Of a DNA stretch of 64,000 bases, positions 13,278-43,299 are shown one piece after another. How positions within the stretch are numbered: the first letter of the stretch is position 1; the number at the start of each line of letters is the position of its first letter. The notes beneath the pieces are model-generated. The model ran no database searches. It saw only the letters and a list, made by a program, of their open reading frames with translations, and was not told the DNA's origin. The position numbers were made by a program, and so were the translations under genes. The DNA is taken from NCBI GenBank assembly GCA_027605045.1, contig JAQFWX010000046.1, positions 62,001 to 126,000 on the forward strand, written 5' to 3'. This DNA comes from Phallus indusiatus (lineage: Eukaryota > Basidiomycota > Agaricomycetes > Phallales > Phallaceae).

Positions 13278-13460
13278 TGGGTCACGCGGAATATAATTTG
13301 TACGCTTATCATATCGTTCTCAGAAGACTTTTGCAATATGGTGCCGGAGCGCTCGAGTATGACTCGAGTTTAAGTTTAGAGTTTGAACCTGAGCTGAGAA
13401 TAGATTGGACCCTCTTCTCGTTTCCTCTTAGGTTCTTCATAGACAACACCATCATTGGAT

Positions 13461-15524: not shown

Positions 15525-15760
15525 GAAGGGACCTATGGGTCCAGGATACACATCATCGTTCACGCGTCCAGTGTCCATAATATTACTTTGACTCTTGGGA
15601 CATTGTTCAATTATGCCTCTCATTATTAATTTCGTCCACTATCTCATATAATCGTCCAAAACAGACCTTTTAGATGAATAAAACGCTTACACGATGACTT
15701 TTTACAAGTTTACGAATAAGGCACCCATTTTCCTACTCTTCAACTTAACTCGAAGTTTAT

Positions 15761-16828: not shown

Positions 16829-17107
16829 AATAAGATTAATGAGAATATATGCACTCGTAGGAACTCGTAGTTCATCAATAAAGCCTTTGGTGAATTCCGA
16901 AATGAGCTCCGCCTAGGCATTTGCCATTCAAAATCTGAAGTAAACGGACTGATTCAGTGGGGAGCGGGTTTAACAGCAACACAGAGTATATTTATTCCAC
17001 AATGATACTAGCACAAAGTTTAAAGCTTAGAAATTGATTTCTTTGATTGTCTACAATCAATTTAAATACGTCAGCCGGAAGTACGGATAGTTGTAATCCT
17101 CGCCGAT

Positions 17108-18375: not shown

Positions 18376-20195
18376 TATTCGTTTGATCTGCTAGAAGCTG
18401 TCGGGTATGCGAATAAAGTGTCTCCTTACGGCGAGGAACGACCGCATCCACGTGACAGTCAACCTTAAACCCGGCGCTCACACGATTGGTTTCACTATTT
18501 CAAAGGCAAAAAAATTGTTAAAATTTTTTGAAAGGATGACGGAGAGGATGGCTTAAAAAACAATTAACAACAGCATGGCATTGAAGCAAGGGTCAACAAC
18601 CGTACAAACGTCGAGGAAGTGACCATATTACATAAGTATTGTCACAGTTTTCTTTCCTTCGCGGCAGCTTTTCTCTTAGGTTCGGCGCAAGCCGGTGAAC
18701 TTCAGGTTCACACGTTCAAAGAACGGGCTTGGAGCAAATGCTTCCGCTGAAGGGGGTAGCGTTTTCGAGGATTGTGAATTATTCTGTAAATAAATTTTGT
18801 ATACAATATCACAAAAATAAACTACATATATATTGAAATTTTTTAGAGGTATAAACATTATTTCTGCATTTACGTGGATCACACAATTTCATGGTTAAGT
18901 TGGATGAGCGTCACGCGGAATGATCACGACACGCCGCCTCCAAAAAAAATCCCAAAGACTCACACATTCTTGAGATGATTGAAATAGTGAATCCGGACGA
19001 GTTTCGATAAGACACAAAGATTAAATTCATACCAAGTTATTTAAGAAACTGCAATCTTCTAGACAGCAAAATCACGTGATTTCTAAGCTTGAACAGGCTT
19101 GACGCTAAGTTTATTCACTGTTAAAACCCTGTAAACGTTGGAATAGAGGAAAAAGTCGTGTATATTATGGAAGAACCTCATGGGAAAAAAATGTATTTGT
19201 GAAGGTCTCAAGATATGTAGCGATTTGACGAGGGGCGCGACTATTTTCTGTTCCAGGATCACTTTGATAAGCTGGAGACGAACGGGTGAAGCATTTTCAA
19301 AATTTAATATAATGAATAATAAGATAAATAACATGTTTTTTACAGGTTTTGAACGAAAAATAAGGTCAAGATGTAAATAAACGGATAAAATGGAAAAAAC
19401 TGATTGCATGAAAAAAAACGCTCCGTACCTAAATCCTAATTTCCTCCATTTCCGCCGCTAAAACGCGAAGTATTTCCGGACCAAATATATCTTTACATAT
19501 CTCCTCTTCAATATGTTCCACATCGATAAAGTGCAAAAATCAACGAGGAAGACGGTAGAGACAAAAAGGCTACCCCCCTTTGAGGTCGAGTTTGCACCAA
19601 GCCCCTTTTCTGAACGCACGAGAACGATGTCACGGTGACTGACTGAGTCTCAATTCGGAAAAGCGGCTTGGCACGAACCTACTTTTCTCTGGCTTTGCAA
19701 CTGGTTCACTGTTCCGTTCCAGTGGATCGCGGTCAATCCTCGATATTGCAACTGGTTCACTGTTCCGTTCCAGTGGATCGCGGTCAATCCTCGATATTGC
19801 ATACGTCAAAACTTAAAATCTCGGAGACATTGACTTTGAATCATTCAAATTGCATAACGCCACGTTTGGAGATGATTTACCGCGAAATCGGCTAATCATA
19901 AATTTGTTCTCGCCGAAGCTAACCGTTCTAATTGTGAGATTTGCCATAGCTGCGTAATTATCGATGTTTGCCATTCTCCTTTCTTCACTCCACACAAACT
20001 AACACGAATGCTCTTCATAGTTAGACTCCATGCTCAAGAAGCTGTGGCGAGCAAACTGCTGGCGATGTCACGAGGCTTTTATTCGAACACCCTGGAGAAT
20101 ATAGCAGAGTCCAGCTGAAAAAAATTTCGGGAATGACTTTTATGTTTAAATAGGATCGTTGTTCCTAGTCTCGACATTGCAAGACTTCATCTGCT
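18376..20195. other. AT-rich intergenic region with a tandem duplication
   Basis: About 1.8 kb without a recognisable gene. Frames at 18676-18882, 19083-19409 and 19668-19895 have no domain. The only clear structure is the 51-base perfect tandem duplication at 19695. The last 200 bases should hold the GH12 promoter. Confidence 0.4.
19695..19801. repeat. perfect 51-bp tandem duplication
   Basis: A 51-base unit beginning TTGCAACTGGTTCACTG is repeated exactly twice (19695-19745 and 19746-19796), followed by the first five bases of a third. Because 51 is a multiple of three, the copies stay in the same frame. Each unit holds a small inverted motif, ACTGG...CCAGT. Perfect identity suggests a recent duplication. 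Confidence 0.9.
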
Positions 20196-21180
20196 ATGAA
20201 GATATTTACTATTTTTGGCCTTTTCCCAGTTGTTCTGAGACTCGTCAGATCATCTCCAATTAAACAAGATATCGACACTTCTATGGTACGTATTTTCATG
20301 TTGTTTTCGAGAACCACACTGAGCTATAACTCAGCACTGTGGTCAATGGGATACCGTCACGGCTGGTAACTACTCGCTTGTTCTTGATCAGTGGGGTGCT
20401 TCTGGCGCGACATCCGGCACCGATTGTGCTCAAATTGTCAGCCTTAATGGGAATACCGTATCTTGGAAGGTCAAATAAATCCATGCAATCCTTCGTATTA
20501 TTGCTTAAGGATTACTCAATTCTTTCAGGTTACTTCCAACTGGGTCGGTGGAACCGGTGTGAAGAGCTTCACCAACATACAACTCAACACGGGCATAAAT
20601 AAACAACTCAGCGCAATTAAGAAGATGCCTGTACGTTCAACTGTTCATTTTGATAATTTTGACTTACTAAAGCAGACTAAAAAAAGACCATTTGGGACTG
20701 GTCCATTTCATCCACGTCAATTGTTGCTGACGTAGCGTTTGATATGTTCACGTCTAACTCTCCAGGGGGCTCCAACGTGAACGAAATTATGATTTGGCTC
20801 GCCAACTTCAATGCGGGACCCATTTCTGCGCAGTATGGTTCGAACGGACAGCCTGTCCCCGTTGCGTCTAGTATCAGCTTGGGGGGACACACATGGAACC
20901 TGTACAGCGGCTCTAATGGAGCGAACAATGTGTTCTCGTTTCTACCTACCTCTGGAACTGTAACGAGTCTTAATACTGATATATTCCCATTCTTCCAGGT
21001 AAGTATGGTTTATTTTAATACTTGAGCTTCTGATTTCTACGAGTGACATATCCGCAGTACTTAATTGAACACGAAGGCGTTTCGTCTTCTCAGTATCTTA
21101 TCACGGCACAGGCCGGCACGGAAGCGACGAGCGGCAATGCTACATTGACAACAAGTTCTTATAGTCTTGCTATCGAGTAA
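20196..21180 (+). CDS. secreted glycoside hydrolase family 12 endoglucanase/xyloglucanase
   Basis: GH12 enzymes cut beta-1,4-glucan or xyloglucan with two catalytic glutamates. The ATG at 20196 opens a hydrophobic signal peptide (MKIFTIFGLFPVVLRLVRS). The mature part contains CGQWDTVTAGNYSLVLDQWG, then TSNWVGGTG. The nucleophile region NEIMIWLANFNAGPI is near 20790, and the acid/base region AGTEATSGNATLTTSSY is close to the C-terminus, with a TAA stop at 21178-21180. Four introns are visible (donors near 20286, 20470, 20630 and 20998). Length of roughly 245 residues fits the family. The neighbouring hydrolases are unrelated in sequence. Confidence 0.88.
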
Positions 21181-21390
21181 AGACCACCTATCAATGTAAT
21201 TTGTAACCGCACAACGTATTTACCGTTATTGACAACTGTATTGAGCCACAAAGAAGGCATAAACTTACACCGAAGCAATTGAATGGCAAACGAGCGGACT
21301 TTTTGGAACAAATAGAAGAATCCGTTAGACATACGTCAAACTCATATTCTGAATATGCATCACGTGTACGATAATGTTTGGGGTAGGCAA

Positions 21391-21397
21391 TATAAAG
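21391..21397 (+). promoter_or_regulatory. TATA-like element of hydrolase B
   Basis: TATAAAG lies 47 bases before the ATG of the hydrolase at 21444. Position and sequence fit a core promoter; function is inferred. Confidence 0.4.
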
Positions 21398-21443
21398 ACA
21401 TTGGGATGCAGCCCCAAATCACACAATAAGCCATACTGGCTCA

Positions 21444-22732
21444 ATGTTCGAGTCAGAATATCTGATTTTAGAAGATGGCACTAAAATTGCTTACACTGTA
21501 CATGGGAAGGAGCATCTGTCCAAGAAGCAGACTTTGCCGCTTGTTCTCATCGTCGGCGCGGCTTGCACCCAAATCGATTGGGCGCGACTATTGCCCCATC
21601 TCATCAAAAAGCGGACGGGTAAAGCCTTCTTATACTAATTTTCTTTTGATCTGAAACAAATATTCTTTTTTTTCCCAAGTTTTGACATTCGATCATAGGT
21701 TTGTCTTTGTGGTTATTCTTTTGTAGCTGTGACAATTCAATAGCGTTTTCAAGGGGATTAGGCTTATCGACATACTCTGACCCAAAAGTACACAACAAGG
21801 TCAGCATTGACTTATTGGCGGGAGATGTAGTTGCCCTCATAGAAAAGCTTGGATGGCGGGACATTGATATTGTAGGGTTTTCTATGGGTGGTAGGAAGAG
21901 TGAAGTTAACCTTATCAGTGATACGAGCTTATGCAAGACCAGGTGTACTTTTGCAACAGATTTTGATTTTTCACAGGCATCCCACCAACCCCCATAAATT
22001 ATCTTTTCGCATTCATCACGCCTTACTCGGGGGAACGTATGCGTCGTCTGTTCCAATGAAAGATTACGACACACAATTGTCAGCAGCTGATAGTGGCGAT
22101 AGCGATCGACAAAAGTCTTATTCAGAAAATCTAAGAAGCATATTCATCCGCGACATTTTGTATTATTCATTCAGCCCTAAATGGATGTCCGCGCCTGAAA
22201 ATGAGATGCGACTCAATGCATGGAAAACCAATGCCTTAATTAACCGGTAAGCATCTGAGTGAATTATAGTAAATCTTCTATAGCAACTCACAAAAGGCCA
22301 TCTACAGCCCATTAGACGTTGTTTGTAGGTCCAGTCGTTTCAAATGGAATATGTCTACTAATAATCGTCACTCGAAGTCGAGCAGCGCAGAATGGTAAGT
22401 AAGCTTTGATACACGCCAAAATGTTTTCAGCTAATGAAATTTGGATTATTTTCCAGGTGTCTAAATTCTCTTTCGTCGATGAGCTGAAATATATAGATCC
22501 GTCCATAAAGGTCCTAGTCGTTCATGGTACCGATGATCACTGTGCTCCATTCAGCTGCGCTGAAGAGATTTTGCGAGCGTGTCCCAACGCCAAGCTAGTG
22601 ACCATTGGGTTAAAACGAGGACAAGTCCCTAGTTATGCTTTTGGACATATATGGTTTGAATATTTCGATGTAGAGGTTTGGGTTGGTGTTATCGAGTCAT
22701 TTTTGGATCAATGTACTAGCACAAAGCTGTAG
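21444..22732 (+). CDS. alpha/beta hydrolase (paralogue B, tandem copy 1)
   Basis: Near-duplicate of the gene at 23427. It starts MFESEYLILEDGTKIAYTVHG and has the conserved CTQIDWARLLPHL. A small exon VLTFDHR precedes GLGLSTYSDPK. The nucleophile motif is GFSMGG near 21880, the acid is in VVHGTDDHCAPF and the histidine in FGHIWFEYFDVEVW, with a TAG stop at 22730-22732. The intron before GLGLSTY must use an AAG acceptor (TTTTCAAG) where paralogue A uses CAG. The exon covering about 22325-22440 is hard to place. Substrate unknown. Confidence 0.8.
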
Positions 22733-22832
22733 AGATTTTTATGCTTGTGTTACAAGGACGAAAGAATTAAGAAATGTTTTAGTACGTAGCATCAGCAGAA
22801 GACACCCTGCGAAAGGTCCGGTCACCTACTCC

Positions 22833-23010
22833 ATGAGCTTCAGTCTCTCGTCCGGAATCTTCGCCCAAGCGCGAACAACTCCAACCCACGGTCCATAATT
22901 TTTTTGAGCTCAAAGTCATTTTCAATCCTCCGGTTAGGTCCGTAGTTGCTATAGCTGCCCTGGTAGCCGGAGGCCCATTATTGCTTGTTTTACCACTTCC
23001 GACTCTGAGC
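22833..23010 (+). pseudogene. truncated copy of the dihydroorotate dehydrogenase 5' end
   Basis: Starting at ATG 22833 (MSFSLSSGIFAQARTT), about 180 bases align with the first part of the gene at 24774 ([16 protein letters not shown]), including the later [13 protein letters not shown] stretch, which here reads close to IAALVAGGPLLLV. A small deletion around 22890 puts a stop in frame. Nothing of the catalytic domain follows. It sits just downstream of hydrolase B, as the true gene sits downstream of hydrolase C, which marks it as the end of a duplicated segment. Confidence 0.8.
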
Positions 23011-23426
23011 GATGAACACTCAATAGTAACAATATCCTCTTTCGACTTACGCATAGAATGAATGATTTTTATTCGGCCACGTGAAACGATTATTCTGATT
23101 GAGTTCATCTTATTGCTTTTCAAAAAAGAAGAAAAAGTGTAGACCAAAAGCTTCAAGTTGGCATTAGCAGGCCTCCGTAGTAACGTACTTAGGAATAAAG
23201 CCAGCCAATAAAAGTACATCATACACACAAAAGAAAAAAACAACGTGCAGATGGAGGCCAGCTGAACGGTATGGCGAACCAGGGCGAACCCTTGCTGCAT
23301 GCAAAATGGGGATGGCATCGTAGGCCAAAGCCAAGCCAAAGCTGAGAAAAGAATTTAGACGCCTGCCGCAATTACTGACACAGTGCAATAAGCTATACTC
23401 ACTCAAGCAAGTACTCAATATTGTCA
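23011..23426. other. spacer between the duplicated units
   Basis: About 400 bases between the dihydroorotate dehydrogenase stub and hydrolase C. No gene recognised; the minus-strand open frames lack domains. The end nearest 23426 includes the promoter of hydrolase C. Confidence 0.35.
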
Positions 23427-24712
23427 ATGTCCGAGCCGGAATACCTGATTTTGGCAGATGGCACCAAACTTGCTTACACTGTACACGGGAGGGAACATCT
23501 GTCCAAGAAGCAGACTCTGCCGCTTGTTCTTATCAATGGCGTCGGTTGCACCCAACTCGATTGGGCGCCCAGGTTAATGCCCCATCTCAGCAACAAGCGG
23601 ACGGGTAAAGCCTTTTTATATTGGTTTTCTTTAATTTGATTTTGAACAATTATTTTTTAAAGTTTTAACATTTGACCAGAGGTTTGTCTTTGTGGTTATT
23701 TTTTTGTAGGTGTGACAATTTAGCGTTTTAAAGGGGATTAGGCTTATCAACATACTTTACTCCAAAAGCACGCAACAAACTAAGTATCGACTTATTAGCG
23801 AGGGATGTAGTTGCCCTCATAGAAAAGCTTGGATGGCGGGACGTTGATATTTTAGGGTTTTCTATGGGTGGTAGGAAGAGTGAAGTCAATCTTATCAGTG
23901 ACATCAACTGACACAAGAACAGGCATACTTTTGCAACAGATTTTGATTCTTCACAGGCATCCCACCAGTCCCCATAAATTATCTTTCCGCATTCATCACG
24001 CCTTATTCGGGGGGGCGTATGCGTCGTCCGTTCCAATGAAAGATTACGGCAGGCAGTTGTCAGCGGCTGCCAGTGATGGGGTTGACGACCGACAAAAGTC
24101 TGAAAATCAAATAAGCTCAATTATTCACGAGATTTTGGTGTATTCGTTCAGCCCTAAATGGATAGCCGCGCCAGAGAATAAAATGCGATTCAAGGCATGG
24201 GAGGATGTTTTGAATAGACGGTGAGCGTCTGAAGTGTAGTATGTAAGTCCTCTATGGCGATTCACAAAGCCATCTGCAGTCCATTCGACGTTATTTGTAG
24301 GTCCAATTCGTTTCAAATGTTGATATGTCTATTGAATGTTCATCATTCAAAGTGGAGCAGCGTAGAATTGTAAGTTCTGGTACTTCTCACCATTTTCAAC
24401 TAATGATTAACTAATGAGATTCGGATCCTCTTTCAGCTCTCTGAGTTTTCTTTTGCCGATGAGCTGAAATATATAGATTCATCCGTAAAAATCCTCGTCG
24501 TACATGGTACGGAAGATCGCTGTGCTCCATTCAGCTGCGCTGAAGAGATTTTGCGAGCGTGTCCCAACGCCAAGCTAGTGACCATTGGGTTAAAACGAGG
24601 ACAAGTCCCTAGTTATGCTTTTGGGCATGTGTGGTTTGAATATTTTGACGTAGAGATTTGGATTGGTGTTATCGAGTCATTTTTGGATCAATGTACTGGT
24701 GCAAAGCTGTAG
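23427..24712 (+). CDS. alpha/beta hydrolase (paralogue C, tandem copy 2)
   Basis: Tandem duplicate of hydrolase B. The ATG at 23427 gives MSEPEYLILADGTKLAYTVHG. It keeps all motifs: CTQLDWA, VLTFDQR, GLGLSTYFTPK, nucleophile GFSMGG near 23865, acid in VVHGTEDRCAP and histidine in FGHVWFEYFDVEIW. The stop is at 24710-24712. Relative to B, a few indels lie in the variable lid region (around SAAASDGVDDRQ). A TAA near 23730 is inside the intron and does not break the frame. The C-terminal exon is almost identical to B at the DNA level. The dihydroorotate dehydrogenase gene begins 62 bases downstream. Confidence 0.8.
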
Positions 24713-24773
24713 ACATTTTTTTGTCGGAGACTTCTACTTAGCGTCACCTGATGACTAAGCAACTCTCACCTCC

Positions 24774-26448
24774 ATGAGCTTCCGTCTCTCGTCCAGAATA
24801 TTCGCCAAAGCGCGAACAACTTCAACATCATCTAATACCCGGTCCATATTCTCTTCGAGCTCAAAGTCGTCTCCAATCTTGCGGTTAGGGTCCGTAGCTG
24901 CTCTGGTAGCAGGAGGCACATTATTACTTGTTTACTACTCCGACTCCCGCTCTGCTATCCATCGTTACTTCTTCACCCCTCTATTAAGAAACGCTGTTGA
25001 TGCGGAAACTTCGCACAAACTAGCGATTAAAATTTTACGCTCGGGGTGGGCCCCTAGAGATCGTGGTGTGGACGACGAACGACTCGCCGTTGAAGTGAGG
25101 ACTGGCCGAAGCCCGTTGATATCTTTTACTTATGCTTCTTGTAGCTTTGGGGAAGTCAATTATCGAATCCAGTTGGATTGGCCGCTGGATTTGACAAAGA
25201 TGGAGAGGCTATAGACGGTCTATTCGGCCTCGGTTTTGGATGGGTCGAGGTAGGAAGCGTTGCACCAAAGCCACAGGTACGTTAGTTTTATCTCTTGAAC
25301 GTGGCTATGATTTAAATTTACATAGCCAGGGAATCCCCAACATCGGGTGTTCCATCTTCCCGACGATAATGCTGTGATTAATCGATACGGTTTCCCTTCT
25401 AAAGGCCACACGTTCCTCGTGTCCCGGTTACTTGCTTACAATCAAAAACACTCCGACGCAGATTCAACCCGGCTCTTATCTGTCAACTTAGGAAAGAACA
25501 AGAACTCTCCTCCGGACTCCATATCAGACTTCTTAACAGGCATACGGGTATTTGCACCTCTAGTGCCAGTCCTCGTCATCAACGTCTCATCACCGAATAC
25601 TCCCGGCCTAAGATCTTTGCAAGGACGAGGTTTACTTGAGCAACTGCTTCGTCATGCAAAGCAAGAACGAGACTCTATCGCTAAAAATACAGGTCACAGG
25701 GCGAAACTGGTGCTCAAGATTGCTCCAGACCTGACGGAAGAAGCCATACGCGATTTAGGCGAGGTTGTACGAAACAGCAATGTAGACGGTGTCATTGTTA
25801 GCAATACAACGATATCACGACCGGATACCTTGTTATCAGGTGAGCTATTATTCCCACAAAATACCTCATTATGTTCTGACGCCTACTTTTTCCTTGATAG
25901 AACACAAGGACGAGATAGGAGGTTTATCTGGCCCACCGCTCAAGCCTTTATCATTGAAAGCTCTTACCGTACTGCGTTCTGAACTGCCGTCCTCTATCCC
26001 CATTATTGGTGCAGGTGGGATTACCTCTGGTGCTGATGCCTTGGAGTTCGCCCGTGCGGGTGCGTCCGCAGTACAGGTATATACCTCATTTGGGTACGGT
26101 GGCGTTGGGACCGTCAGAAGGATCAAAGACGAATTAAATGATGAACTAAGGCGTTTGAATACCACTTGGATCGATGTATCTGGCAAGGCAATCAATAGTT
26201 TGTCATGGAAATCACCTTCGCAACTAGTCACAACTACCGGCTCGTCGTCCGATATACAGGCTCTCATCAGGGAGGCTGAAAATTTAAAAAAGCGATTAAG
26301 CGAAGTTGAAGACAACTATTTCTCACCTGGCTGCGACTCTCAACAAAAATCTGTGGCACTTGCTATGACATCCGCAGGCGAATCGGATTTGCGAAAGAAG
26401 GATCATATCGATACGCCGATTATACCTCCTCCTGGTGTTATACCATGA
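24774..26448 (+). CDS. dihydroorotate dehydrogenase (class 2, mitochondrial)
   Basis: Catalyses the fourth step of pyrimidine synthesis, oxidising dihydroorotate to orotate and passing electrons to ubiquinone. The N-terminus is a Ser/Arg-rich mitochondrial presequence followed by a membrane segment ([15 protein letters not shown]), as in class 2 enzymes anchored to the inner membrane. After an intron (25101-25148) comes [20 protein letters not shown] and [13 protein letters not shown]. Later there are [16 protein letters not shown] (substrate-binding serine region), DGVIVSNTT and [10 protein letters not shown]. Introns lie near 25276-25325 and 25839-25898. The C-terminus is about 80 residues longer than usual, with a likely coiled segment ([17 protein letters not shown]). 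This tail is unusual for the family. Confidence 0.92.
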
Positions 26449-31300: not shown

Positions 31301-31601
31301 TCAACCCTGATACTCATCTTCCCCATAAGCGTTACTTTTGTGTTTGGGTATGAACGTAAAACTGTCCGGCGCGGGACCGAGGAACATCTCCGAGATTTTG
31401 ACCCAGGTGTTACTATTGCCGCTGGCGAGAAGGGTTTCTATAGTTAAACGTCAAATACGGCACTGATGAATGTAAATGAAAAAAAAGCGCGCCTAATTCA
31501 TCTCGTCCACGGAATAGCGGGGGTCTTTCGTTAATTTTACCCGGCAGTCGTTCAAGAAGGCCAATTGGAATGTATCGGTATTGGAAAGACAACGCGTCAC
31601 A
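31301..31601 (-). pseudogene. DUS3: Dus3 C-terminal part, cut off from the rest of its gene by a transposon
   Basis: Read on the minus strand, this is the C-terminal end of tRNA-dihydrouridine synthase 3. It begins [20 protein letters not shown] and contains [14 protein letters not shown]. After a short intron (about 31435-31495) it ends with [17 protein letters not shown] and a TGA at 31301-31303. Its 5' end at 31601 is the duplicated target of the transposon. The preceding codons of the same exon (ARRYLCD) are found at 41010, 9.4 kb away. Sequence within this part is not decayed, so the insertion appears recent. Confidence 0.9.
31595..31601. repeat. target site duplication, left copy
   Basis: CGTCACA, identical to 41010-41016. 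With the preceding G it can also be read as an 8-base duplication (GCGTCACA at 31594-31601 and 41009-41016), because the last base of the right inverted repeat is also G. Confidence 0.85.
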
Positions 31602-31617
31602 CTCAGTAAAAACGGAA
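31602..31617 (+). repeat. left terminal inverted repeat of the transposon
   Basis: CTCAGTAAAAACGGAA, the exact reverse complement of 40994-41009. The motif ACGGAA recurs just inside, at about 31612, 31622 and 31632, suggesting clustered transposase-binding sites at this end. Confidence 0.88.
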
Positions 31618-32358
31618 GTCACGGAAATGCACGGAAAAATTACAAGCGCGTCACCGGAATTAATAACTTGCTATATCGTCCGTTTTTTTTACAGGCGATT
31701 TACGAAATGCTAATATATTTTTAATTGATCTCAGAAGGTTGGTAGTTCGCGAGTAGTCAGTTGAAATTAAATTACCAGCTGGATCAGGTCTTCAAAGATT
31801 AACGGCACAGTCCAACATCGTTAGTCGGAAGTATTCAAACGTAAAATTGTATTCAAAAAGTTTCAACCGAGATTAATTCATAGTCAACAGACATTAATCA
31901 GGAGTATATTGTAGTCAGTATATTTTATATACAGGTTAATACTAGTCAAATTAATGTAATATTGATGTATATGAATTACGCTGAATTAATGTATATTAAT
32001 ATTAGATTTCGCTCCAGTGCTCGTTTATTTTTGCCGCAGGGACAGAAGCCAAAGCCGTTATGTAGTCTAAGTTTGAGACCGTTAGACAAATACTTGGAAT
32101 ATGATGGGAAATTGTACTCACCCTCCTTAAGTATGTTTTTACCTTTTTTCTTGAAAACGGGGATATTCAGCTTCTCTGACAAATTCTTGAGTTGCATAAC
32201 ACGCAATTTCTAATTATGGTTGATGTAGATACGATCACGAACACAGAAACTAGAAGGCTTGCCTTAAAATCGAAACCTTGTTGCAGTCCGGCTGATGTTG
32301 ATGGGCCGGGATTTGACATGTGGCTTTGCTCCGAAAGATTCAAGTCAGATGTCTAAGT

Positions 32359-33265
32359 TCAATGTTCAACTTGAGTCAAAGCGTTTAAATGAGCACGGTC
32401 ACTTACTTTTTTTGCTGTTTCCCAATGTTTCCACATATTACCCACAATGGTTTCTAGATACACATGGGCGACGACATTTGCAGTAGTAATGTTGCGCTTG
32501 AAACAGAGATGTCTGGCAACCCGACAAGTCTTGACTGTTGCGGCGAGAATCCGATAAGCCGTCTGTTTGTTCGCGATTTGTTCCCAAGGGATATTGTCAA
32601 ACCGAATATCACCACTACGGAAGTGGCTATGACCCCAACATGAATTGGTGTCGTCTTCACCAGTATCCGGAGAGTTTGGATCAGCATTCTCAATCATGGC
32701 TACGAAATCTTCGACTGCTGGCGATGAGGACGCTTCTTCGGTTACTGGAATTTGGTGCAGGATCTTGAGAAGGTCCAGTGCATGTGGAACACCCTTGAAC
32801 TCCGAGTCGTTTGTGAAAACATCTGTGTCCATTCAGGTTAAATAAATGAAACAATATATGCAAGAAGTTAGATACCTTGTAATTCTTCATACGAAGCAGC
32901 AACTTCGATGAAGGAAACATCGACGGTATTATCGACGGTCGTACCCATTTCAACATCTACATTCATCGCTGGGGAGACAACGATGGGCGGTATATCCGAC
33001 ACGCTGTTTTCTAGTGAAATTGTAAGCGAAAAAAATAAAACCAAAAAAAAACGACATACTAATGCGCCTTTTCTTTTTTAAACGCGCGGTCGGAGAGTTG
33101 ACTTGAATCTGGTGTTTAGCGACAGCCGCCGCGCTTGACATTCCCGATGATAATGGTGGTGGTTGTGGTTGTGGTGATGATGATGATGATGATGGTGGTG
33201 ATGATGATGGTGGTGATGATGATGGTGGTGATGACGAGGAGGATAATGCTGATGATGGTGATAAC

Positions 33266-33303
<38 letters not shown>

Positions 33304-34352
33304 TGGGGGCGACAAGGTTCCAGACGGCCCTTCCGTACCTTGAGGTAGCTGCGCCGCAGAACCCAGGTCAAGCGGTGATGGTGTCGGCGGCGCTACTAAT
33401 GGTGGCGGTGGTGTCTCATCGGTCTCATCGACATCTTTGGTTTCCCCGAAGACATGCGAGAGCATACTCCCCAAAACGTAATGTGCCTTCCAGTGCAAGG
33501 AGCAAAGCCTCAGATCCGGAGCGCGAGCCTCAAGTCTGGCCACCGCATCATCCCACTCCTTAGGCCAGTTGCTCTTGAAGTAGGTTTTGGACATCTTGAC
33601 TTTGTCAGGCGAAGAACTGACAAGAGTTTGAAAAGTCTCTCGAAGGATCCGAATGGACTCTTGTTTGATAAAGTTCCATGTGCCATTTGAGATGATTGTT
33701 CCCTGGTCCGACCGAAGGGAAGCCGGCAACGGAGGTCGCGACTGGTTGGTTTTAGAAACCTTCATTTGGTTAGACTTGCGGGTGTCTTCCCGGTCCCACA
33801 GCACTTCAAAGGGATAGATTGGGGGTCGGACCAAAGGCTGATCGATGAGTGGTGGTATTGCTATTCCCGCATTTTGGGATGCTGAGTCGCTTGGAGAGAG
33901 AGATGATACCGAAGGGAAGGTTCCTAAAGAGCTATATGTGCATGTCAGTAAAAGACAGCTCACGTCATCATATGGAAGACTTACTGGGGGTGTCTCTTTA
34001 GTTCGTTCAATAGCTCATTATGAGTATGGCGTAGCTCATCATGTTGGTCGCGCAGGATTAAGTACTTCTGGAACAAGTCGGCAAGCTGGGTTGACGAATT
34101 CACGTGGAGTTTGTATATTTCGACAAAGTATTTGTTTTTGGTCATATCTGTGAATGAAAGGGTCTCTATATCTTGTAATGAGAGTCGAGTGCAGCTAGTG
34201 CAGGGTTCTGAGGGGATCGAGAGTGTCGGGGAAGGTGAGAGAGTCAGGGCAGGTGCAGTCAGGGCGGGTGCAGTCAGGGCGGGTGCAGCAGTCAGGGCGG
34301 GTGCAGCAGTCGCAGCCAAAAGGCGAGAAAAGTCGAGTTGGTCAGGTCCCAT
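32359..34352 (-). CDS. transposon-associated accessory protein, Pro/Ser-rich
   Basis: Divergent from the transposase. The probable ATG at 34352 opens MGPDQLDFSRLLAATAAPAL with short PALTA repeats, then a coiled-coil-like segment (LADLFQKYLILRDQHDELRH). The next exon (33.0-33.93 kb) includes WNFIKQESIRILRETFQTL and the run DLRLCSLHWKAHYVLGSML, then a long low-complexity Pro/Ser tract encoded by the trinucleotide repeat at 33148. Two more exons (about 32880-33010 and 32390-32830) are acidic and then contain AYRILAATVKTCRVARHLCF. A GTAAGTG at about 32399 suggests another exon to the left, so the 3' end is uncertain. Similar Trp/Cys 'LC..HWKA' proteins occur beside basidiomycete DNA transposases as I recall it. 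No enzymatic domain is visible. Confidence 0.6.
33148..33306. repeat. trinucleotide-rich microsatellite inside the accessory gene
   Basis: Runs of GAT and GGT/GGTG units on the plus strand, giving Pro/Ser runs in the accessory gene frame on the minus strand. The same DNA gives His or Met/Val runs in other frames, which are not real genes. Confidence 0.8.
34242..34311. repeat. 15-18-bp minisatellite
   Basis: Four to five tandem units of about GTCAGGGCGGGTGCA, some with an extra GCA. They encode the Ala/Pro/Leu/Thr repeats near the N-terminus of the accessory protein. Confidence 0.8.
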
Positions 34353-34740
34353 TGCATAGCTACGCTCCAGCGGAGCACCCACAATAATATTCGTTGGAGT
34401 GGATGGGAAGGAGGCGGCGGTGTGCATGAGATGATGGAGGCAGCTGGCAGAGAGCAAAACGTACGCGTACCACATTGAATGTCCGCAACGTGGGAACGTA
34501 GCTGCTGCGTCTGTATACAGCCGGCATACAACGTGCAAAACACGCACGAACTTGTAACTCTTAATGAGGTGAATATTAATATTTAGATAGCTAATACTCA
34601 CGGAAACTAACTTATTACATGGTTTGACATGTTGTTTCCTCAAGGCTCAAATAAATGTTGAATCTATATATATGCACCCGAAATCATGTAAATAATTGCA
34701 GTTACCAATCATTACAAACCCCAATATCAAGTACACGATT

Positions 34741-37700
34741 CAATGATCTGTTATTGCTCTTTCTGCTCCTGCCAAGGCGGGAAACAGCTTCAGCCTAAAA
34801 CAGTCGTCGCTCACCGGAATAGCGATCAGAAACGCCTAGACCTTCTCAATCAATTAGACGACCCTGAGTCCAAAGCATATTCTATCAAGCTTGCAGAGTC
34901 TATCATAAAAACTCAAGCTCAGCTACAACTCGTTCTATCTGGAGTTGGTGAGTGCTCAATTTCATGCCTTTGCTAATAAATCAATTTGAATGTGACATCG
35001 ATACTTTCAGAGAAGAAAAGAAGAACTCGAGCGCGACGCACCGTCAATATAAATGCGCCTGATTTAGCACCACAGTCTTCCGGCAAGACTGATATCGTTC
35101 CTGGGCCTGATCATGAATTCATGGACGAGGAGATTGACGAATGTGAGGAATTTATAGACGAGAGAATTGACGAGTGTGAGAAATTTATGGATGAAGGGAT
35201 TGACGAATGTGAGACATTCGATTTGTGAAATAGTATAACTTAACTCACGCGTTTGCGGATTAATAAAATTAGATGAGGACCATGCCGCATCTCTCGAATT
35301 TCCAGAAGATAGTTGCGAGCCAGGTTTTTTTTTCTTTCTTTCTACTTTCCATTTTGTTTATAATGGAATAAGGTACTACGGAAATACTTATAGAAGATAT
35401 TGAGTCAGCCTCTGATATGCCAGAGGAAATAGTGGAATTGGTGTGGTCTATTTAATCAGCTGCAACGTGCTCATACTGACTAAAATGTGCAGCACGCGCA
35501 GGACAATACCGATTTGGACAATCCGGACAGTCCGGACTCTGGGAGCGTTGACGATTCTGATTCTGAATACATGGAAAATTTGGAATACAATAGTTCAGTT
35601 GATGTCGACGTACTTCCAAACTCAGTGATGAAACTTCGAGAAGAATTTCTTGGAGGATACAGATGTCCACAGACTTCGCCGAAAAATGTCCAGCCTGTCA
35701 AGCTTACCCCTACTGAAGAGGCGTCTCTAGCTTATTATATTGGTTGGTGGAAAGGAAATTCCAGGGATGAGGCATATGATATCAGCAGATACCTCATTTC
35801 CAACCTAACTGGAATGCCTTTACTCTCCTTGCATAACGTTCGAAAGCTAGCAGAGTCCGTGGTGCACTTTCGCGTCGTAATGGTGGATATGTGCCCAATG
35901 AGCTGTTTGGCATATACTGGGCCGTACGCACAACTGAGTCACTGCACTCATCCGAAAAAGAATGGGATTTGCAACAACCCAAGATATCGCAGCGACAACA
36001 ATGGGGAGCCTACACCCCTGAAGAAATTACCTTCTCGTAAACAATTCGCCGTTTTACCAGTCATGGCAATAATACGGGCTCTGTTTGCCAACGAGACAAG
36101 CTCGAAGGACATGCGCCACAGAGATACCTGTCTGAAGGAGGCTTTACATCTCGTTGGAACAGCCATAAAATACCAAGATTTCGCGAATTCGACTAGCCAC
36201 CGTACACAATTTCAACGCATGCATCTTTTCCAAGATCCTCGCGACGTTGCTTTTGCGATCTCTTCGGACGGAGCACAGCTAACTATGAAACGTCAATCCA
36301 GCACTTGGATTGTCATTTTAATCATTCTCAATTTACCTCCTCATATCCGCTACAAATCCAACAATGTTATTATGAATCTAGCCATTCCGGGACCAAATAA
36401 CCCGCAAAACCTTGATTCTTTCTTATACCCGCTCTTTCAGGAAATGGCAAAGGCATCTGAGGGGATATGGATGTGGGACGCCGTCGATTCGACTGCCTTC
36501 TGCATGAGGGCGTATATTACCTTGGGGCTAGGTGATATGCCCGGCTCTGCAAGACTAAGTGGTATGGCAGGACATACCGCCGTTCATGGAGACAGATTCA
36601 GTCACGTCGAAGGAGCAAAAACTAGTGATACGAACAAGAAACGAATTTATTATCCCATGTCACCACCCGAAAAAGAAATTTACAACAAAAGCCGGCCAAC
36701 CTATGATCTCAATGCCCTCCCATTACGCACTCACGCAGATTATTGCGAAACGATTGGCAGGCTTGAAGCTGCAACTTCTGAAAATGAACGCTCCCGTATA
36801 GCACAACAAACGGGTATATCACGACTCAGTTTGTGCGCCGCTAGCCCGGCATTCCAACACCCGAGCTTTTTCCCATTCGATCCATTCCATTTATTTTACG
36901 AGAACTGTATGGCATACATATGGGAATTATGGGTGAAAGTAGCGTCAAACCCTATTGAAAACATACAGATACAAAAGTCACACCTTCAGCGAATAGGTGA
37001 ATGGCTGCCGCCAGCAATGACGACGCTACCTCCGGCTTTTTGTGGTCCCGTTAGAGACGTCTTCTTGAAAAACCAGAGCCAATACAAAATATACGAATGG
37101 ATGGCCTTAGTTCATTGGTATATCACCCCCATGTTGATCGAGTTGCGCCATGTCGATGGTAGAATCGTCGACAACTTTTCACAATTTTCCTATATAGTGG
37201 AGTATGCAATGACGATCACCGGAAGAAGCGAAAGTGATCTCGCATCCCTTCATTCCAGGATCGTTACCTTCCTCACCGAATACGAGAGGGTTTACGTTGG
37301 TAACAATCCAGCAAATGTGTCAAGGTGCCGTCTTTGCATCTTTCAACTCATTCACATTCCGGCCCATATACGATGGAATGGATCGGTTCGATTGGGCTCT
37401 CAAGCTACAGTCGAGCGAAGTATTGGTGAACTAGGATATCGAATACGTTCTCAAAAAGCTCCCTTTGCAAACTTAACGCGCCTCATCAAAGAGAGGGAAC
37501 TCATTAAAATTCTTCAGCTATACTATCCAAAATTAACGTCTCTGCTAGCTCCCCCGGTGACTAGGACTAGGACTTCGCCCATAAAGTCGAAGATGTTTTC
37601 TCGACAGCTGCAAAAGAAGAAATTGCTAGACGAAACACAGAAAGATCTACATGAACTCAACGCTATCAAGGAATGGCTGGGGAATACAGATATTCTTCCT

Positions 37701-38194
37701 AAAGATTGTGAACGATGGGGAAAAATCAGGTTGAATGGATATGTTCTACGATGTGCGCTCTTTGAATTACCTGAAGAGCCCCCAAAGCGATACTATCGAT
37801 GGTTCAAGGTGAATTAAACTTTTCGTAGTGTATCTTTACAATGACCCAACTCGATTTTGAATAGGCTGAAGGCAAAAACAATTTTGGAGAGGCTTTAGTT
37901 TTTTATCGCGTCCATTTTGAAGGAGTCGTCAAGGAATTGGTGATTTTTAAGCCGCTTATTGATATAAAAATCAAATCCTGTGCCTCTAGAATTCGGGGAA
38001 AATGGAGCAAAGACATTAGGATTATGGAAGTCTCTTGTATAACGAGTATCGTCGGTATATGGCGTATTCCGAACTCGGAATACGTCTATATTTTGGAAAA
38101 ACATCCCGGGCTCGACGTGCTCATGCAACATTTGCCTGATCTAGCAGAGACGGCGTCCGAAGATGCGACGGAAGAAAAAGAGCCTGAGGAGTAA
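34741..38194 (+). CDS. Tnp2-type transposase
   Basis: The ATG at 34741 begins a likely zinc-binding N-terminus (CYCSFCSCQGGKQLQPKTVV then AHRN). Four short acidic exons follow, including DEEIDECEEFIDERIDECE. The main exon (about 35494-37810) has YYIGWWKGNSRDEAYDISRY and then the Transposase_21/Tnp2 core: ISSDGAQLTMKRQSSTW (first catalytic Asp region), IPGPNNPQNLDSFLYPLF, and LGLGDMPGSARLSGMAGH (second Asp region). After it come CAASPAFQHPSFFPFDPFHL, and near the end SQATVERSIGEL. A last exon after a GTGAATT donor encodes FGEALVFYRVHFEGVVKEL and stops at 38192-38194. No internal stop or frameshift is seen, so it looks intact. I considered Plavaka and KDZ families and reject them because their signature segments are absent. 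Confidence 0.85.
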
Positions 38195-38559
38195 TTCATT
38201 TTTCTCTACTATCTAAACACGATTCCATAATATATGCATGATTATTATTTACATACCCTGCCTTAACGAACAAATTATCAGTATTCAAAGAATATTATGA
38301 TGATATGAATTATTAATTACATCCGAAGAAATGACAATGTCAGATACGAAGTGGTTGTGGCCGTGCAAGATACGTTTGGGGTATCCATACTCGATCTGTT
38401 GAACCGGTTAATTATCGGACAATGATGGTGTTATCTCTTGAGGCAGTTAGAATTATATCTGGGTTTTCAGAAGAAGTGGCTATAGCAGTAATCCATCCTT
38501 TATGTCACTATAGAGAACAGGCGTAGATAGCCCAAAGATCTTGCCAGAAGATTTTGTGA

Positions 38560-39480
38560 AAAACGTCGCGTAAAATACTCCACAAGTCTAATCTGAAAGA
38601 CGAATATATCCATATGAAGTCGATCCTACGACTATGTAGTGACCTCGGCAAGGATATACATCGTCGAAAACTCTTATCTTCATGGTCTCACTCCTCAGGA
38701 ATTCTTCTTTAAAACTATGTGGTTTGAGAAGATATAATTGATACGACTGCCATTTCAGCCGAGACCAGTTATATTCAGCGTCGTCTAGTACAAGCCTCGG
38801 AATATGGTCTGCTACGATGGAACTGCACGCAATTATCTGGGCGATTTAATCCAATTTGACAGAGAAGACGGTGCCTTGATCCAACGTCAATTAATACCCT
38901 TTCCTCTCAGCAATAAGGCCAAGGCTTTTAAGTGACGATACAAAGATATGGACAGAGCCCATCAAAGGGTTTTTCCCTCGTACCTTTCCAGTTCGAGTTG
39001 AACGATAATTTTTAAGTACAGACCGTTAATGCATAATTGAATCAATTGATTGAAGATCGTCGCATCCTCCGGGACTTCGTCTTTACAGCCAACGATGCAA
39101 CTTGGCCACACTATCTACCTGTGAATTTTCGAAGAATTGCGCAGAATTTGCAGCAGATTTTCCGCGAAGATCGTCGAAAGCCCGGTGACATGTTGGCATT
39201 CTCCCTGCATCATCGATTCAGTAAAAGCATTATCTTCCAAGCTTATCTTTGTAGAACTGTTGTTGAACATACACCTTCTATAGACGTTCGCAACTTGACC
39301 CGTACTAGAGGCCATCTAAACAAAGAAGCGTTTGAGTGGGAATTATATAGAAACGAAGTTCAAACAATCTACTAGTACAGTTAATTCTGGAGATGTGCGA
39401 GACATTGGCAGCGCAATCTATTGGTGAACCAGCGACACAAACGACGTTGAACACTTTTTACTAAACATAACACACTCAAA
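38560..39480 (+). pseudogene. RPB1: decayed fragment of the RNA polymerase II largest subunit gene inside the transposon
   Basis: Translated pieces in shifting frames match successive parts of Rpb1: VENSYLHGLTPQEFFFKTMW (38664), then IDTTAISAETSYIQRRLVQA (about 38730), then MVCYDGTARNYLGDLIQF (about 38810), then QLIEDRRILRDFVF (39042), then LPVNFRRIAQNLQQIF and DRRKPGDM (about 39115-39190). Last comes [20 protein letters not shown] (about 39400). The order is the same as in Rpb1. Several frameshifts and stops separate the pieces, the first few hundred bases (before 38660) are too decayed to read, and neither end of RPB1 is present. It therefore makes no functional subunit. No clear introns are seen in the fragment. 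Confidence 0.85.
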
Positions 39481-39971
39481 AAACCTTTCTGCATAAAACA
39501 AATATACTCATCTTTGACGTCAAATTCCACAGATTTATCGGTGCGGTAAACCACGGGAGTATTGAATATCCTATTGTAATATTTGTCAAACAGGAATGCG
39601 AACTTACAGACTTACTTTCACATGTAAAAATATGTTATTACGATTGCAGAATTATGAGTCTGTGCTGTTCTATATGAGTGCATTAGCGATATTCAAGAAA
39701 CATAAACAGAAGTCGTTACCGCAGTGGCTTGAATAATGAAGCAAGGTGATATATGCCGTTAAAAATATTCCTGTGCTAGAAAAGACAGAAATATTAATGA
39801 CTCTGTTGATAAAACAGACGTCTAAACAAAATATTAAAGAAAAGCGAAACATGATGTAGGTAATTACATCAATTTGATTGCGGAGACATCTTTATTCCCT
39901 GCTAAAATCTTTCTACTAACCAGTTTCTTTATTTAAATTAGTATTACGATTGAAGGTGAAGAAACTAAATC

Positions 39972-40697
39972 TCACATATACTCCAATACAGCCGCTAAGA
40001 TTCCGAAGCAGCAAGCAAAGTAAACCGATGCTTGTGTATTAAACAAGCCCGTAAAACTAGCGGCGAAGTCGAGGAAGATTGAGAGAAAACCAAGACAACG
40101 TTTCCTCGCCGTTTCGTCTTCAATAAAACAGAGCCTAATAAAGTTTATTGACGAAAAAAATATTCATAATGGGCTGCGTGAACACTTACAAAAAGTCAAT
40201 TTGTGCGGACATAATGTTGAGGAAAAACCCGAGCGCAATCGACGTATTTGATATAGACAGAATCGCAGAAACCACGGCAAAAATCACTGAGACGACTTTG
40301 TGAGTGATAAAATTCGCCTGTGGAATAGATAGTTAGTCTGGCGGCGTTGGGTTGTGGGTGTGTCTCCTACCTGGTGGCGGTTTAAGCGGTTTTCTTGATA
40401 TAGATCAAAGATGAAAATGCTGATAAACGTCGTCAATAAAATATAGAATATATAATGAACGAGAATTACTCACAAAAGACCCGTCATAAGCCTAGCAACG
40501 AGGATTTTTCCAGCGACGGCGTAGCTAGACGAATTAGTAGCCAAAGCACTACTACAAATCGATAAAACTAGCATAGAAGTACGTGAAATACTAATGATAA
40601 TGAGATACATAGTAGTTGAAGAAAGAATGAGTTGTGTGACGAAAGAAGGCGGTGGCAAGCAACGACGTAATCGACGTAAATGACCGAAAGCGTGCAT
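39972..40697 (-). CDS. multi-pass membrane protein carried by the transposon
   Basis: Four exons with good splice sites: ATG at 40697 to about 40472; then IFIFDLYQENRLNRHQ (about 40375-40422); then ANFITHKVVSVIFAVVSAIL with SISNTSIALGFFLNIM (about 40190-40320); and LCFIEDETARKRCLGFLSIF to the TGA at 39972-39974. The protein of about 190 residues has at least four hydrophobic segments and short loops. I do not recognise a named family; the pattern resembles the many unnamed small fungal integral membrane proteins. It lies inside the transposon between the RPB1 fragment and the right inverted repeat and runs opposite to the transposase. Intact exons suggest selection or a recent capture. Function unknown. 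Confidence 0.6.
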
Positions 40698-40815
40698 AAC
40701 CCAAACGGACTCGCGGGATGCAGTATAAAAATTGAAACGAGCGTAAACTGCTATTGTTTGAAATGTATTTACTATCTACAAGTTGAGTAAATACATGGGA
40801 TTTGAGCTATACCGA

Positions 40816-40843
40816 CGCGTTGATGCGTCAACGCATCAACGCG
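40816..40843. repeat. 28-bp near-perfect palindrome near the right end of the transposon
   Basis: Two exact 13-base arms (CGCGTTGATGCGT and its reverse complement) with a 2-base spacer CA, GC-rich in an AT-rich surrounding. It lies 166 bases inside the right end. It could form a hairpin or bind a dimeric protein. Confidence 0.9.
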
Positions 40844-40993
40844 ACTGTACTAACGTGCCCCAAGTCCCACCCGTCGACCAATCCGCGCGGCCCATCAAAA
40901 ATCGTATTTCTGCAAGACTTCGGCTGACTAAGGTACGACTGAATTTTACAGAGCCGCTACGAGCTCCGAATCTCGCTTGAATTTTGTTTGAAT

Positions 40994-41009
40994 TTCCGTT
41001 TTTACTGAG
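40994..41009 (-). repeat. right terminal inverted repeat of the transposon
   Basis: TTCCGTTTTTACTGAG, the exact reverse complement of the left end at 31602-31617, followed at once by the target copy CGTCACA. Confidence 0.88.
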
Positions 41010-41016
41010 CGTCACA
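41010..41016. repeat. target site duplication, right copy
   Basis: CGTCACA, matching 31595-31601. On the minus strand it encodes the Cys-Asp codons of the Dus3 exon (RRYLCD), which are repeated at the other side of the transposon. Confidence 0.85.
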
Positions 41017-43299
41017 TAGGTATCGTCTTGCTTTGTTTACTCCAGCCGTATCGGAGCCGAAATGACTGGTATTTGCGGTAATTTTCGTGACAAAAGATTG
41101 GAATTGAGGTGTACACTTACTCTAAACCAAATTCAGCGTACTTACGGCATTGCGCGTAAGCAACATGATTTTGCAGATACTGAAAAATTTGCTATACCTG
41201 TCGTATAAGATCCAACCTTTCTCGAGAACTAATGTCCCATTCTCTTTTCTCTTTGATTTCAGTGAATATCCAAGGTTTAATCAAAGCTCCTCGAGCGATC
41301 ATGACTCCGTCTACTCCTGTATTATCGATGGCGGTCCAATAGCTTTCGGATGAATAACAATCGCCCCCACCGAAAATTGGAATAGTGGGTACTTTCGTTT
41401 TAAGGTAAGAACGCTATTCTAATTACAGATTAATAAGAATCAAGGATACGTACAATCGTCGTCCTGAGAAGCCTCGCGAAGGGTGTCGACGCATTGTTTG
41501 ATATAATCCCAATCCGCGAGACGGGTATACCGTTGTTGTCGTGACCGGCCATGGATCTAATAGTAATACTCAACACACACGAATAACGAAATAGCTTTAA
41601 AGCGAACTGTTATCGCGCTGGCACCCCATTCTTTGGCTACTCTAGGCATTAGCTTGTGCGCAGTGTTTTTGTTATCTTTGATTCCAGTCCGGATCTTCAG
41701 AGTGAGGGGTATTTCGCCTAAAGCACGATTCATTCCAACTAATATTTCTCCTAGTTTACTGACGCGATCAAGTACTTTTAGAGAATAATGACATCGTCAG
41801 AGAAAAATCCTTGCCCAAAACTTATCACTACTTACATGCAGAACCAGCACCCGATTTAAACACAAGGTCGATGGGACAACCACAGTTAAGGTCGACAAAA
41901 TCCAGGTTACTACCAAACTCTTTGGCCATTAATTCGGCTGTCGGTACCAGAGTTGAAGGTTTATTTCCAGCTAGTTGAATTCCGAATATTTTCTCGGATG
42001 GATGCCGACGGACCAAAGACCACTCTTCCTTGGAAGCGGATAAAAATGAGGTCGCCAAACCCATTTCTCCACATGTGATATCCGCTCCCATCTTGACGCA
42101 TAGCCTTCTGAAGGGCTACATAGAAGAGGTCAGTTGGTGGTCATTGTAATAAAAGGTGGTCATTCGCACCAAATTTCCGACGGTAGTGAGAGGCGCAAGA
42201 TCTGGAGTGATATCAGTTAGCTACAATGCATTCGATAATCGTTTTACGTACATGTTTTCCCCCTCCAATCCAAACGTTTTTTCTCGATGGGCCGCAATAT
42301 CGCATCTGGAGAATCGACTTGAGACTCGTCGAAGTCTATTGTTGGAGTAAAACTGTCTGTTTCAAGGGCTTCATTTGCATTTCCCGCGGCCGTTGGCTTG
42401 ATCTTCTCTAATGCGGCCAAATATTCTGTGGCAATTGGTGTCAGGTACTGAGTGCAAGAACGAGTGGTTAGTCATAAATCCATTTGAGCTACGAAGAGTA
42501 CGTCTACCGTTTTCGTTCTTAACGCTTTAGCCGTTTCGGTTTTCAAAAAATTCCGTTCAGCAAATGATTTTTTGAATTCGTCTTGCTTTTGTTCGTCCTG
42601 TATCAGAGCTATCCCGAGACCGGAATCCACTCGACTAGCGTGACCTCCGAGGAATCTACATTTTAAACCGACGTTGCATACGCCGGCCGACTCAAAGATT
42701 GGGCAAGAGGTTGTAAAGTCAACGGATGGAAAGTCAGGATCGACAGGTCCGGTTTCTAATGGGATAACAAACGGCGGTTCCGTGGACAGAGAAGAGGACG
42801 GGGGAAGCTTAATGTCTCTGGATTTGTTTATGAGGTAAGCCTTGATATCATGTGTAAAACGACATCTATACAAGAAAGAAAAAACAGATTTATTAGCCAC
42901 TCAATGTGATGATAAAGCTTGAAGTGGTTACTGTTCTCCGAATCCGCATGGCACCCCGGACGCAAGTTTCCAGCATAACTCAACATTCTCCGTCACTCTT
43001 GCAAACCTCCGATTCTTATTAGCTCCTCTATTCTTTTTCTTTTCTTCTTTTACTAATTGCTTTCGCTGAGCCCCTGAAAGCTTCTGCTTTTTACTCGGCG
43101 GTTCTTGCGCTTCGCTCTCATCGATACCGCGACCTTGATCAGCTTGATTGTGCTCAACATCCTGTCCTTCTGCTGCGTCGTCGTTTGGTATTGGAGCATT
43201 CAACGATATTATGTATCTGGAAAAGTTTATTTATGGAAGATTTACTCTGCAAGTGACCTACTCGGGCTTAACAGGCGCGACGCCAGGGAGTAATGGCAT
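41010..43299 (-). pseudogene. DUS3: Dus3 N-terminal and catalytic part, truncated by the transposon
   Basis: tRNA-dihydrouridine synthase 3 reduces a uridine in the variable loop (U47) of tRNAs using FMN. The ATG at 43299 starts MPLLPGVAPVKPEYII after which a basic stretch (PPSKKQKLSG) is likely a nuclear signal. Two CCCH zinc fingers, typical of Dus3, follow: CWKLASGVPCGFGEQ with CRFTH, and CPIFESAGVCNVGLKCRFLG. The catalytic domain has [16 protein letters not shown] and the active-site cysteine in [15 protein letters not shown], with [18 protein letters not shown] and [16 protein letters not shown] later. Exons YAEFGLE and HFGSDTAGVNKARRYLCD end at the transposon. The rest (about 75 residues) is at 31301-31601. 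Without precise excision the product lacks the conserved C-terminus. Confidence 0.92.

What the first reader, a model, noticed from the sequence alone, without database searches (positions are those of the whole stretch)
31301..43299. Dus3 gene split within an exon by a 9.4-kb transposon with exact target duplication
The two halves of the minus-strand Dus3 exon meet exactly at the two copies of CGTCACA (31595-31601 and 41010-41016). Each copy is joined to a 16-base perfect inverted repeat facing the transposon. Outside the insertion both halves read openly, so the event looks recent. The tRNA modification enzyme would lose its conserved last 75 or so residues, which implies a null allele, a second intact allele in the other nucleus of a dikaryon, or tolerance of Dus3 loss.
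Basis: seen in the sequence. Interest (0 to 1): 0.88.

Follow-up and report, generated by a model that had tools for sequence, protein, structure and literature searches.

The report
Mushroom tRNA-enzyme gene broken by transposon
In one of two copies of a chromosome region in what is probably a stinkhorn mushroom, a 9.4-kb jumping gene has landed inside a tRNA-modifying enzyme gene, while the other copy still holds the whole gene; the jumping gene itself looks like an unusual relative of the CACTA family.

Summary
A 9,408-bp element (31602-41009) with 16-bp perfect terminal inverted repeats sits in exon 11 of 12 of a Dus3 gene, flanked by 7-bp duplications CGTCACA. A collinear, 95-97% identical region on contig C184 of the same assembly has the empty site and an intact 658-residue Dus3. 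So one copy is broken and one is whole; that these are the two nuclei of a dikaryon is inferred. Translation enters the element and stops after Ala-Gln, losing 78 conserved residues; no splice at the duplications restores the sequence exactly. The gene break is ordinary. The element is less so: it encodes a tnp2-type (PF02992) transposase and a second gene conserved in a relative, but ends in CTCAG and makes 7-bp duplications (exact at 7 of 10 sites with this TIR; 5 of those 7 are NGTSACN), where a 2025 paper gives 2-5 bp for the CACTA/Transib group (passages). It also carries degenerate pieces of host RACK1, lacking exactly a 57-nt intron, and RPB1.

The parts
31602..41009 (.). DNA transposon, 9,408 bp, tnp2/PF02992 type, absent from the homologous region C184
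   Evidence: TIRs and TSDs; empty site; transposase domain
31595..31601 (.). 7-bp target site duplication CGTCACA, left copy
41010..41016 (.). 7-bp target site duplication CGTCACA, right copy
31602..31617 (+). left terminal inverted repeat CTCAGTAAAAACGGAA
40994..41009 (-). right terminal inverted repeat, 16 of 16 identical to the left one
35484..37817 (+). main open exon of the transposase gene, 777 aa, PF02992 Transposase_21
   Evidence: Pfam E 9.5e-22; 239 homologues at E<=1e-3, 120 listed; D262, D332, C618, H624, H628, E644 identical in >=97% of 123 rows
37865..38194 (+). C-terminal exon of the transposase gene
   Evidence: 49% identical over 108 aa to the same exon in the C171 element; 49% to residues 935-1041 of P0122
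32359..32832 (-). part of the second transposon gene, function unknown
   Evidence: 58% identity over 144 aa to the C171 element; no Pfam family
32950..34646 (-). probable further parts of the second transposon gene, proline/serine-rich (ORFs 32950-34014 and 33981-34646)
   Evidence: 36% identity over 127 aa between 32953-34014 and the C171 element; 33981-34646 has no Pfam family and was not compared with C171
38285..38638 (-). captured degenerate fragment of RACK1 (5' part), antisense to the transposase, lacking exactly the 57-nt host intron
   Evidence: 285 of 343 aligned bases identical, 12 gaps, to host C156 gene; RACK1 identity
38661..39484 (+). captured degenerate fragment of RPB1 (RNA polymerase II large subunit), 12 indels that break frame
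   Evidence: PF04992 E 3.1e-13; 75% identity to host RPB1 at C97 and C129; indels
41010..43299 (-). Dus3 exons 1-10 and first part of exon 11 (43262-43299, 42932-43216, 42508-42865, 42252-42447, 42170-42201, 41836-42115, 41608-41774, 41454-41556, 41198-41391, 41121-41140, 41010-41065)
   Evidence: exon map carried over from the C184 gene model, which was drawn by hand; PF01207 and PF25585 matches
31301..31601 (-). separated end of Dus3: rest of exon 11 (31493-31601, with one TSD copy) and exon 12 (31301-31437), after a GC-AG intron

Best explanation
A cut-and-paste DNA transposon of a tnp2 (PF02992) lineage inserted into exon 11 of one haplotype's Dus3 gene at a preferred heptamer, CGTCACA (NGTSACN), duplicating 7 bp. 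Shown: the element's ends, the duplication, the empty site and intact gene on C184, and the reading frame running into a stop (...Y-L-C-D-A-Q-stop). Inferred: the transposase bound the CTCAG ends and made a 7-bp staggered cut; the broken allele is a null or strong loss of function; the two regions are the two nuclei of a dikaryon, so the intact allele supplies dihydrouridine-47 synthase. Also inferred: earlier in its history the element picked up host sequence, at least once from spliced mRNA (RACK1), plausibly as filler during break repair.
For: Empty site in a collinear 95-97% identical region. Intact 12-exon, 658-residue Dus3 there. Elements with the same ends: 7 of 10 sites have exact 7-bp duplications, and 4 of the 6 exact sites other than Dus3 carry NGTSACN, the motif set by the Dus3 site (binomial P 1.1e-10). 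The three loci that match most of the transposase (C147; C171, 66%; C162, 62%) all lie between CTCAG ends. Pieces of the second gene are conserved in the C171 element in the same layout. The lost residues 581-658 are 77% identical on average to the 120 listed homologues, against 75% for 291-580 and 43% for 1-290. No GT/GC-AG pair in the duplications restores the sequence. The RACK1 junction matches the spliced form.
Against: No reads were available, so contiguity and phase rest on the assembly. Copy numbers of control genes are uneven, so the two regions could be duplicates in one nucleus. DNA searches with window 1-10000 and 12001-24900 gave no long match in C184, but did not return the window itself either, so they are uninformative. 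Three of 10 sites lack an exact abutting duplication, and 2 of the 7 exact ones (TGTTCCT, GATGACT) do not fit NGTSACN. Nine further, short or distant (27-34% or under 50 aa), transposase matches were not examined for their ends.
Confidence: 0.9

Rival explanations
1. The two regions are a segmental duplication within one haploid genome, and the transposon has broken one redundant paralogue.
For: Some other families have one, or more than two, copies in the assembly.
Against: Collinear across window 24850-60350, that is about 26 kb of shared sequence once the 9.4-kb element is set aside, with a pair of equally scoring matches further on at nearly equal spacing (C147:60.0 kb and C184:1918.2 kb). 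C147 is a 289-kb contig against 1.98 Mb for C184, as expected of a haplotig. RPB1 also has two copies, 98.6% identical.
Confidence: 0.07
2. The 9.4 kb is removed from the transcript as an intron, so Dus3 is still made.
For: Plant elements are known to be spliced out imprecisely (recalled, not searched).
Against: No GT/GC-AG pair at the duplications restores the sequence; the obvious GT...AG pair at the ends leaves one extra base (worked out by hand). Imprecise splicing at other sites was not tested.
Confidence: 0.03
3. Misassembly has joined transposon and gene.
For: No reads were inspected; the assembly appears to hold redundant contigs.
Against: Element ends, duplication, empty site and six other sites with exact 7-bp duplications agree to the base.
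Confidence: 0.02
4. The tnp2 gene is a passenger nested in a transposon of another superfamily (for example hAT with 7-bp duplications), which would explain the 7-bp TSDs.
For: hAT7 and Kyakuja make 7-bp TSDs (PMC12730594, passages). The minus-strand second gene has no known domain, so a divergent transposase there is not excluded.
Against: The three loci that match most of the transposase lie between CTCAG ends, and in two of them, the two read in full, the layout of both genes is the same. Among 8 window-element ORFs and 5 C171 ORFs, the only Pfam families over their cut-offs were PF02992 and the RPB1 piece; other matches were below cut-off, such as PI4K_N, Spc29, DUF4218 and DUF1258. The C162 element was not read in full.
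Confidence: 0.12

Closest known systems
CACTA/EnSpm (CMC) transposons
   Same: PF02992 transposase; conserved acidic residues and the C(2)C, H(3)H motif before a conserved E; a second gene, as En/Spm has (recalled)
   Different: Ends CTCAG...CTGAG rather than CAC..GTG; 7-bp duplication, against 3 bp for the fungal EnSpm and 2-5 bp for the wider CMCT group in PMC12730594 (passages)
Plavaka (fungal)
   Same: Agaricomycete DNA transposon related to EnSpm
   Different: Plavaka has TGT..ACA or CATCA..TGATG ends and 2-3 bp duplications (PMC12730594 passages); no Plavaka hit in Pfam here
Kyakuja and hAT7
   Same: 7-bp duplications in fungi (PMC12730594 passages)
   Different: Different transposases; Kyakuja is described there as having no TIRs
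Gene-capturing CACTA elements such as Tgm-Express of soybean (PMC1947982; title and abstract start in a listing)
   Same: Carry host gene fragments
   Different: Here one fragment lacks an intron at an exact splice junction; both are degenerate, and whether they are transcribed is unknown

Membership tests
CACTA/EnSpm | PF02992 Transposase_21 domain | tested here: met
   77.7 bits, cut-off 28.6
CACTA/EnSpm | C(2)C and H(3-4)H between second D and last E | tested here: met
   C615-C618, H624-H628, E644; C618, H624, H628 and E644 are identical in >=97% of the 123 rows, C615 is not in that list. Which D and E are catalytic is inferred.
CACTA/EnSpm | CAC..GTG (or CA..TG) ends | tested here: not met
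   CTCAG..CTGAG at the three transposase-bearing elements. The other elements were picked by these ends, so they are no independent test.
CACTA/EnSpm | short duplication (3 bp in fungal EnSpm; 2-5 bp in the wider CMCT group) | tested here: not met
   exact 7 bp at 7 of 10 sites, among them 2 of the 3 transposase-bearing elements (Dus3, C162; not C171)
Plavaka | Plavaka transposase domain (PF18759) | tested here: not met
   no hit in 8 window-element ORFs and 5 C171 ORFs
hAT | hAT transposase | tested here: not met
   no hit in the same ORFs
Dus3 (tRNA-dihydrouridine-47 synthase) | CCCH zinc fingers plus Dus catalytic domain | tested here: met
   PF25585 E 5.5e-11; PF01207; 70% identity over the full length to Hysterangium Dus3
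Dus3 (tRNA-dihydrouridine-47 synthase) | makes D47 in tRNA | not testable with these tools
   needs an assay

The most novel reading that the evidence does not exclude
The element belongs to an undescribed lineage of tnp2 transposons, with CTCAG ends, 7-bp duplications and a near-palindromic NGTSACN target, that lies outside the 2-5 bp range given for its clade, and that takes up host sequence from spliced mRNA (cDNA) during its own break repair.
Probability: 0.4. Interest if true: 0.55.

Novelty: new variant of a known kind. Interest (0 to 1): 0.38.

Why it matters
The gene break itself is an ordinary transposon hit in one of two copies, probably masked by the other; it gives a natural Dus3 loss-of-function allele whose effect could be read in single-spore homokaryons. 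The element matters more: if the 7-bp duplication and CTCAG ends hold in other species, the rule that the CACTA/Transib group makes 2-5 bp duplications needs widening, and the target motif would make insertion sites partly predictable. An intronless RACK1 piece inside a DNA transposon points to capture from mRNA.

Tried and rejected
An 8-bp duplication was considered, because the BLAST overlap at the empty site is 8 bases; rejected, since the exact repeats at related sites are 7. Relaxed constraint on the broken copy was tested: 34 synonymous and 11 non-synonymous codon differences and 4 gap codons between the copies, none of the 11 at or beyond the insertion. There is no sign of an old pseudogene, but this says little about age. 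A literal search for the TIR letters found 37 papers, 10 of them listed, none of those 10 on fungal transposons by title. Searches for print on 7-bp duplications in fungal tnp2, EnSpm, CACTA or Plavaka elements (listings only, and passages of PMC12730594, PMC8290104, PMC4455052, PMC9674265 and PMC1636069) showed none; PMC4455052 names 7 bp only for hAT. Repbase itself could not be searched. Searches for the other haplotype with window 1-10000 and 12001-24900 were uninformative, because even the self match was missing. A solved-structure search of Dus3 covered residues 289-555 at most, so it says nothing on the lost end. No fold prediction was run.

Full report
Observation. The heptamer CGTCACA lies at 31595-31601 and 41010-41016, each joined to CTCAGTAAAAACGGAA facing inwards. 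Both sides carry parts of one minus-strand gene. The window is G000:C147:62001-126000.

The other copy. A family search for Dus (PF01207) found the broken gene on C147, a second Dus3 locus on C184 and two further Dus loci on C122. C184:1872001-1892000 matches window 54259-44258 at 95.2%, 44257-41009 at 94.9% and 31601-24850 at 96.8%, and C184:1866001-1871821 matches 60350-54522 at 95.0%. The 9.4 kb is missing there and only one heptamer is present. The C184 gene, modelled by hand, has 12 exons and 658 residues without interruption; 10 of its 11 introns are GT-AG and one is GC-AG. Its best relatives are from Hysterangium (70% over the full length), Sphaerobolus, Clathrus (77% over 92%) and Ramaria.

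Consequence. In the C147 copy translation runs ...RRYLCDAQ-stop, the stop lying in the TIR. Residues 581-658 are lost. Among the 120 listed of 4730 homologues these are 77% identical on average, as high as residues 291-580 (75%); 119 of 120 align over at least 90% of them, and 33 positions are identical in at least 98%. A null is therefore likely, but not shown. No GT/GC-AG pair inside the duplications can restore the sequence.

The element. ORF 35484-37817 (+) is a PF02992 transposase with 239 homologues at E<=1e-3, 120 of them listed; named ones include Coprinellus, Panaeolus, Athelia and Agrocybe. In an alignment of 123 sequences D262, D332, C618, H624, H628 and E644 are among the conserved residues. 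A minus-strand second gene (ORFs within 32359-34646) is shared with the C171 element: 58% over 144 aa and 36% over 127 aa in the two pieces compared; a third was not compared. No other full copy of the element was found in the assembly: the longest DNA matches elsewhere are 68-69% over the transposase (40 of 47 candidates scored). By protein, C171 (66%) and C162 (62%) match most of the transposase; nine other matches are short or distant.

Its family. A pattern search with the TIR allowing one mismatch gave 77 places against 78 for the backwards control, so a single TIR means little; but 10 inverted pairs within 12 kb stand out against 0.26 expected. With the C171 element, whose second end needed two mismatches, 11 elements were examined; C112 and C128 are two copies of one site, so 10 sites. 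Seven have exact abutting 7-bp duplications: CGTCACA (Dus3), AGTCACC (C162, 10.2 kb, around a transposase), AGTCACG, CGTGACT, TGTTCCT, GATGACT, TGTGACG. Three do not: C112/C128 and C24 show a 7-mer repeated 2 or 5 bases off, and C171 shows none. Taking the motif NGTSACN from the Dus3 site, 4 of the 6 other exact sites fit (P 1.1e-10); TGTTCCT and GATGACT do not.

Captured pieces. Between the transposase and the right end lie 38285-38638, antisense RACK1 (285 of 343 aligned bases identical; the host gene at C156 has a 57-nt GT-AG intron that is exactly missing here; score 379 spliced against 318 unspliced), and 38661-39484, RPB1 in sense (75% identity; 12 indels that break frame). The host RPB1 is a long open frame there, so it cannot show whether that capture came from RNA. 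The name RACK1 rests, where designed and general WD-repeat proteins top the list through repeated matches, but the one-stretch matches at the expected position are RACK1/Gib2. A later gain of the intron by the host gene is not excluded.

Known ground. PMC12730594 (passages) says that the CMCT group shares CA..TG ends in most cases and makes 2-5 bp duplications, and that Kyakuja and hAT7 make 7 bp. PMC1636069 (passages) reports 2-bp repeats for animal CACTA relatives, at 7 of 14 copies in Schistosoma. Marasmius oreades work (PMC9674265, passages) suggests that new variation arises mainly in the monokaryotic stage, which fits an insertion in one haplotype. Gene fragments in a CACTA element and capture of spliced mRNA sequence at breaks in mouse zygotes are in print (PMC1947982, PMC4516963; titles and abstract starts in a listing).

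Organism. The assembly (67.22 Mb, 206 contigs; window G+C 43.6%) resembles the Phallus indusiatus ZS assembly (67.32 Mb, 216 contigs, 44.05%; PMC9948255 passages; its abstract says 323 contigs), twice the size of P. rubrovolvatus (32.89 Mb; PMC11766896 passages).

Noticed in passing
38285-38638: Antisense RACK1 5' fragment inside the transposon lacks exactly the 57-nt intron of the host gene, suggesting mRNA-derived capture.
   Followed up: yes
38661-39484: Degenerate RPB1 fragment in sense inside the transposon, 22 bp from the RACK1 piece.
   Followed up: partly
C112:269463-270117 and C128:322609-323262 (L076, L077), C24:303319-303572 (L052): Short elements with the same TIRs whose 7-bp repeats are offset by 2 or 5 bases at one end, perhaps imprecise ends or footprints.
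   Followed up: no
31438-31492: Dus3 intron 11 appears to be GC-AG with a poor donor (G|GCGCGC) in both copies.
   Followed up: no
1-10000 and 12001-24900: DNA searches of the own genome with these stretches did not return the window itself, unlike the transposon query; cause unknown.
   Followed up: no
18677-19684: A roughly 1-kb dispersed repeat, with 91-92% identical copies on C112 and C138 and shorter pieces on many contigs.
   Followed up: no
C120, C153, C183 (PF00562 hits): Three loci with identical scores for one RPB2-like gene suggest redundant contigs in the assembly.
   Followed up: no
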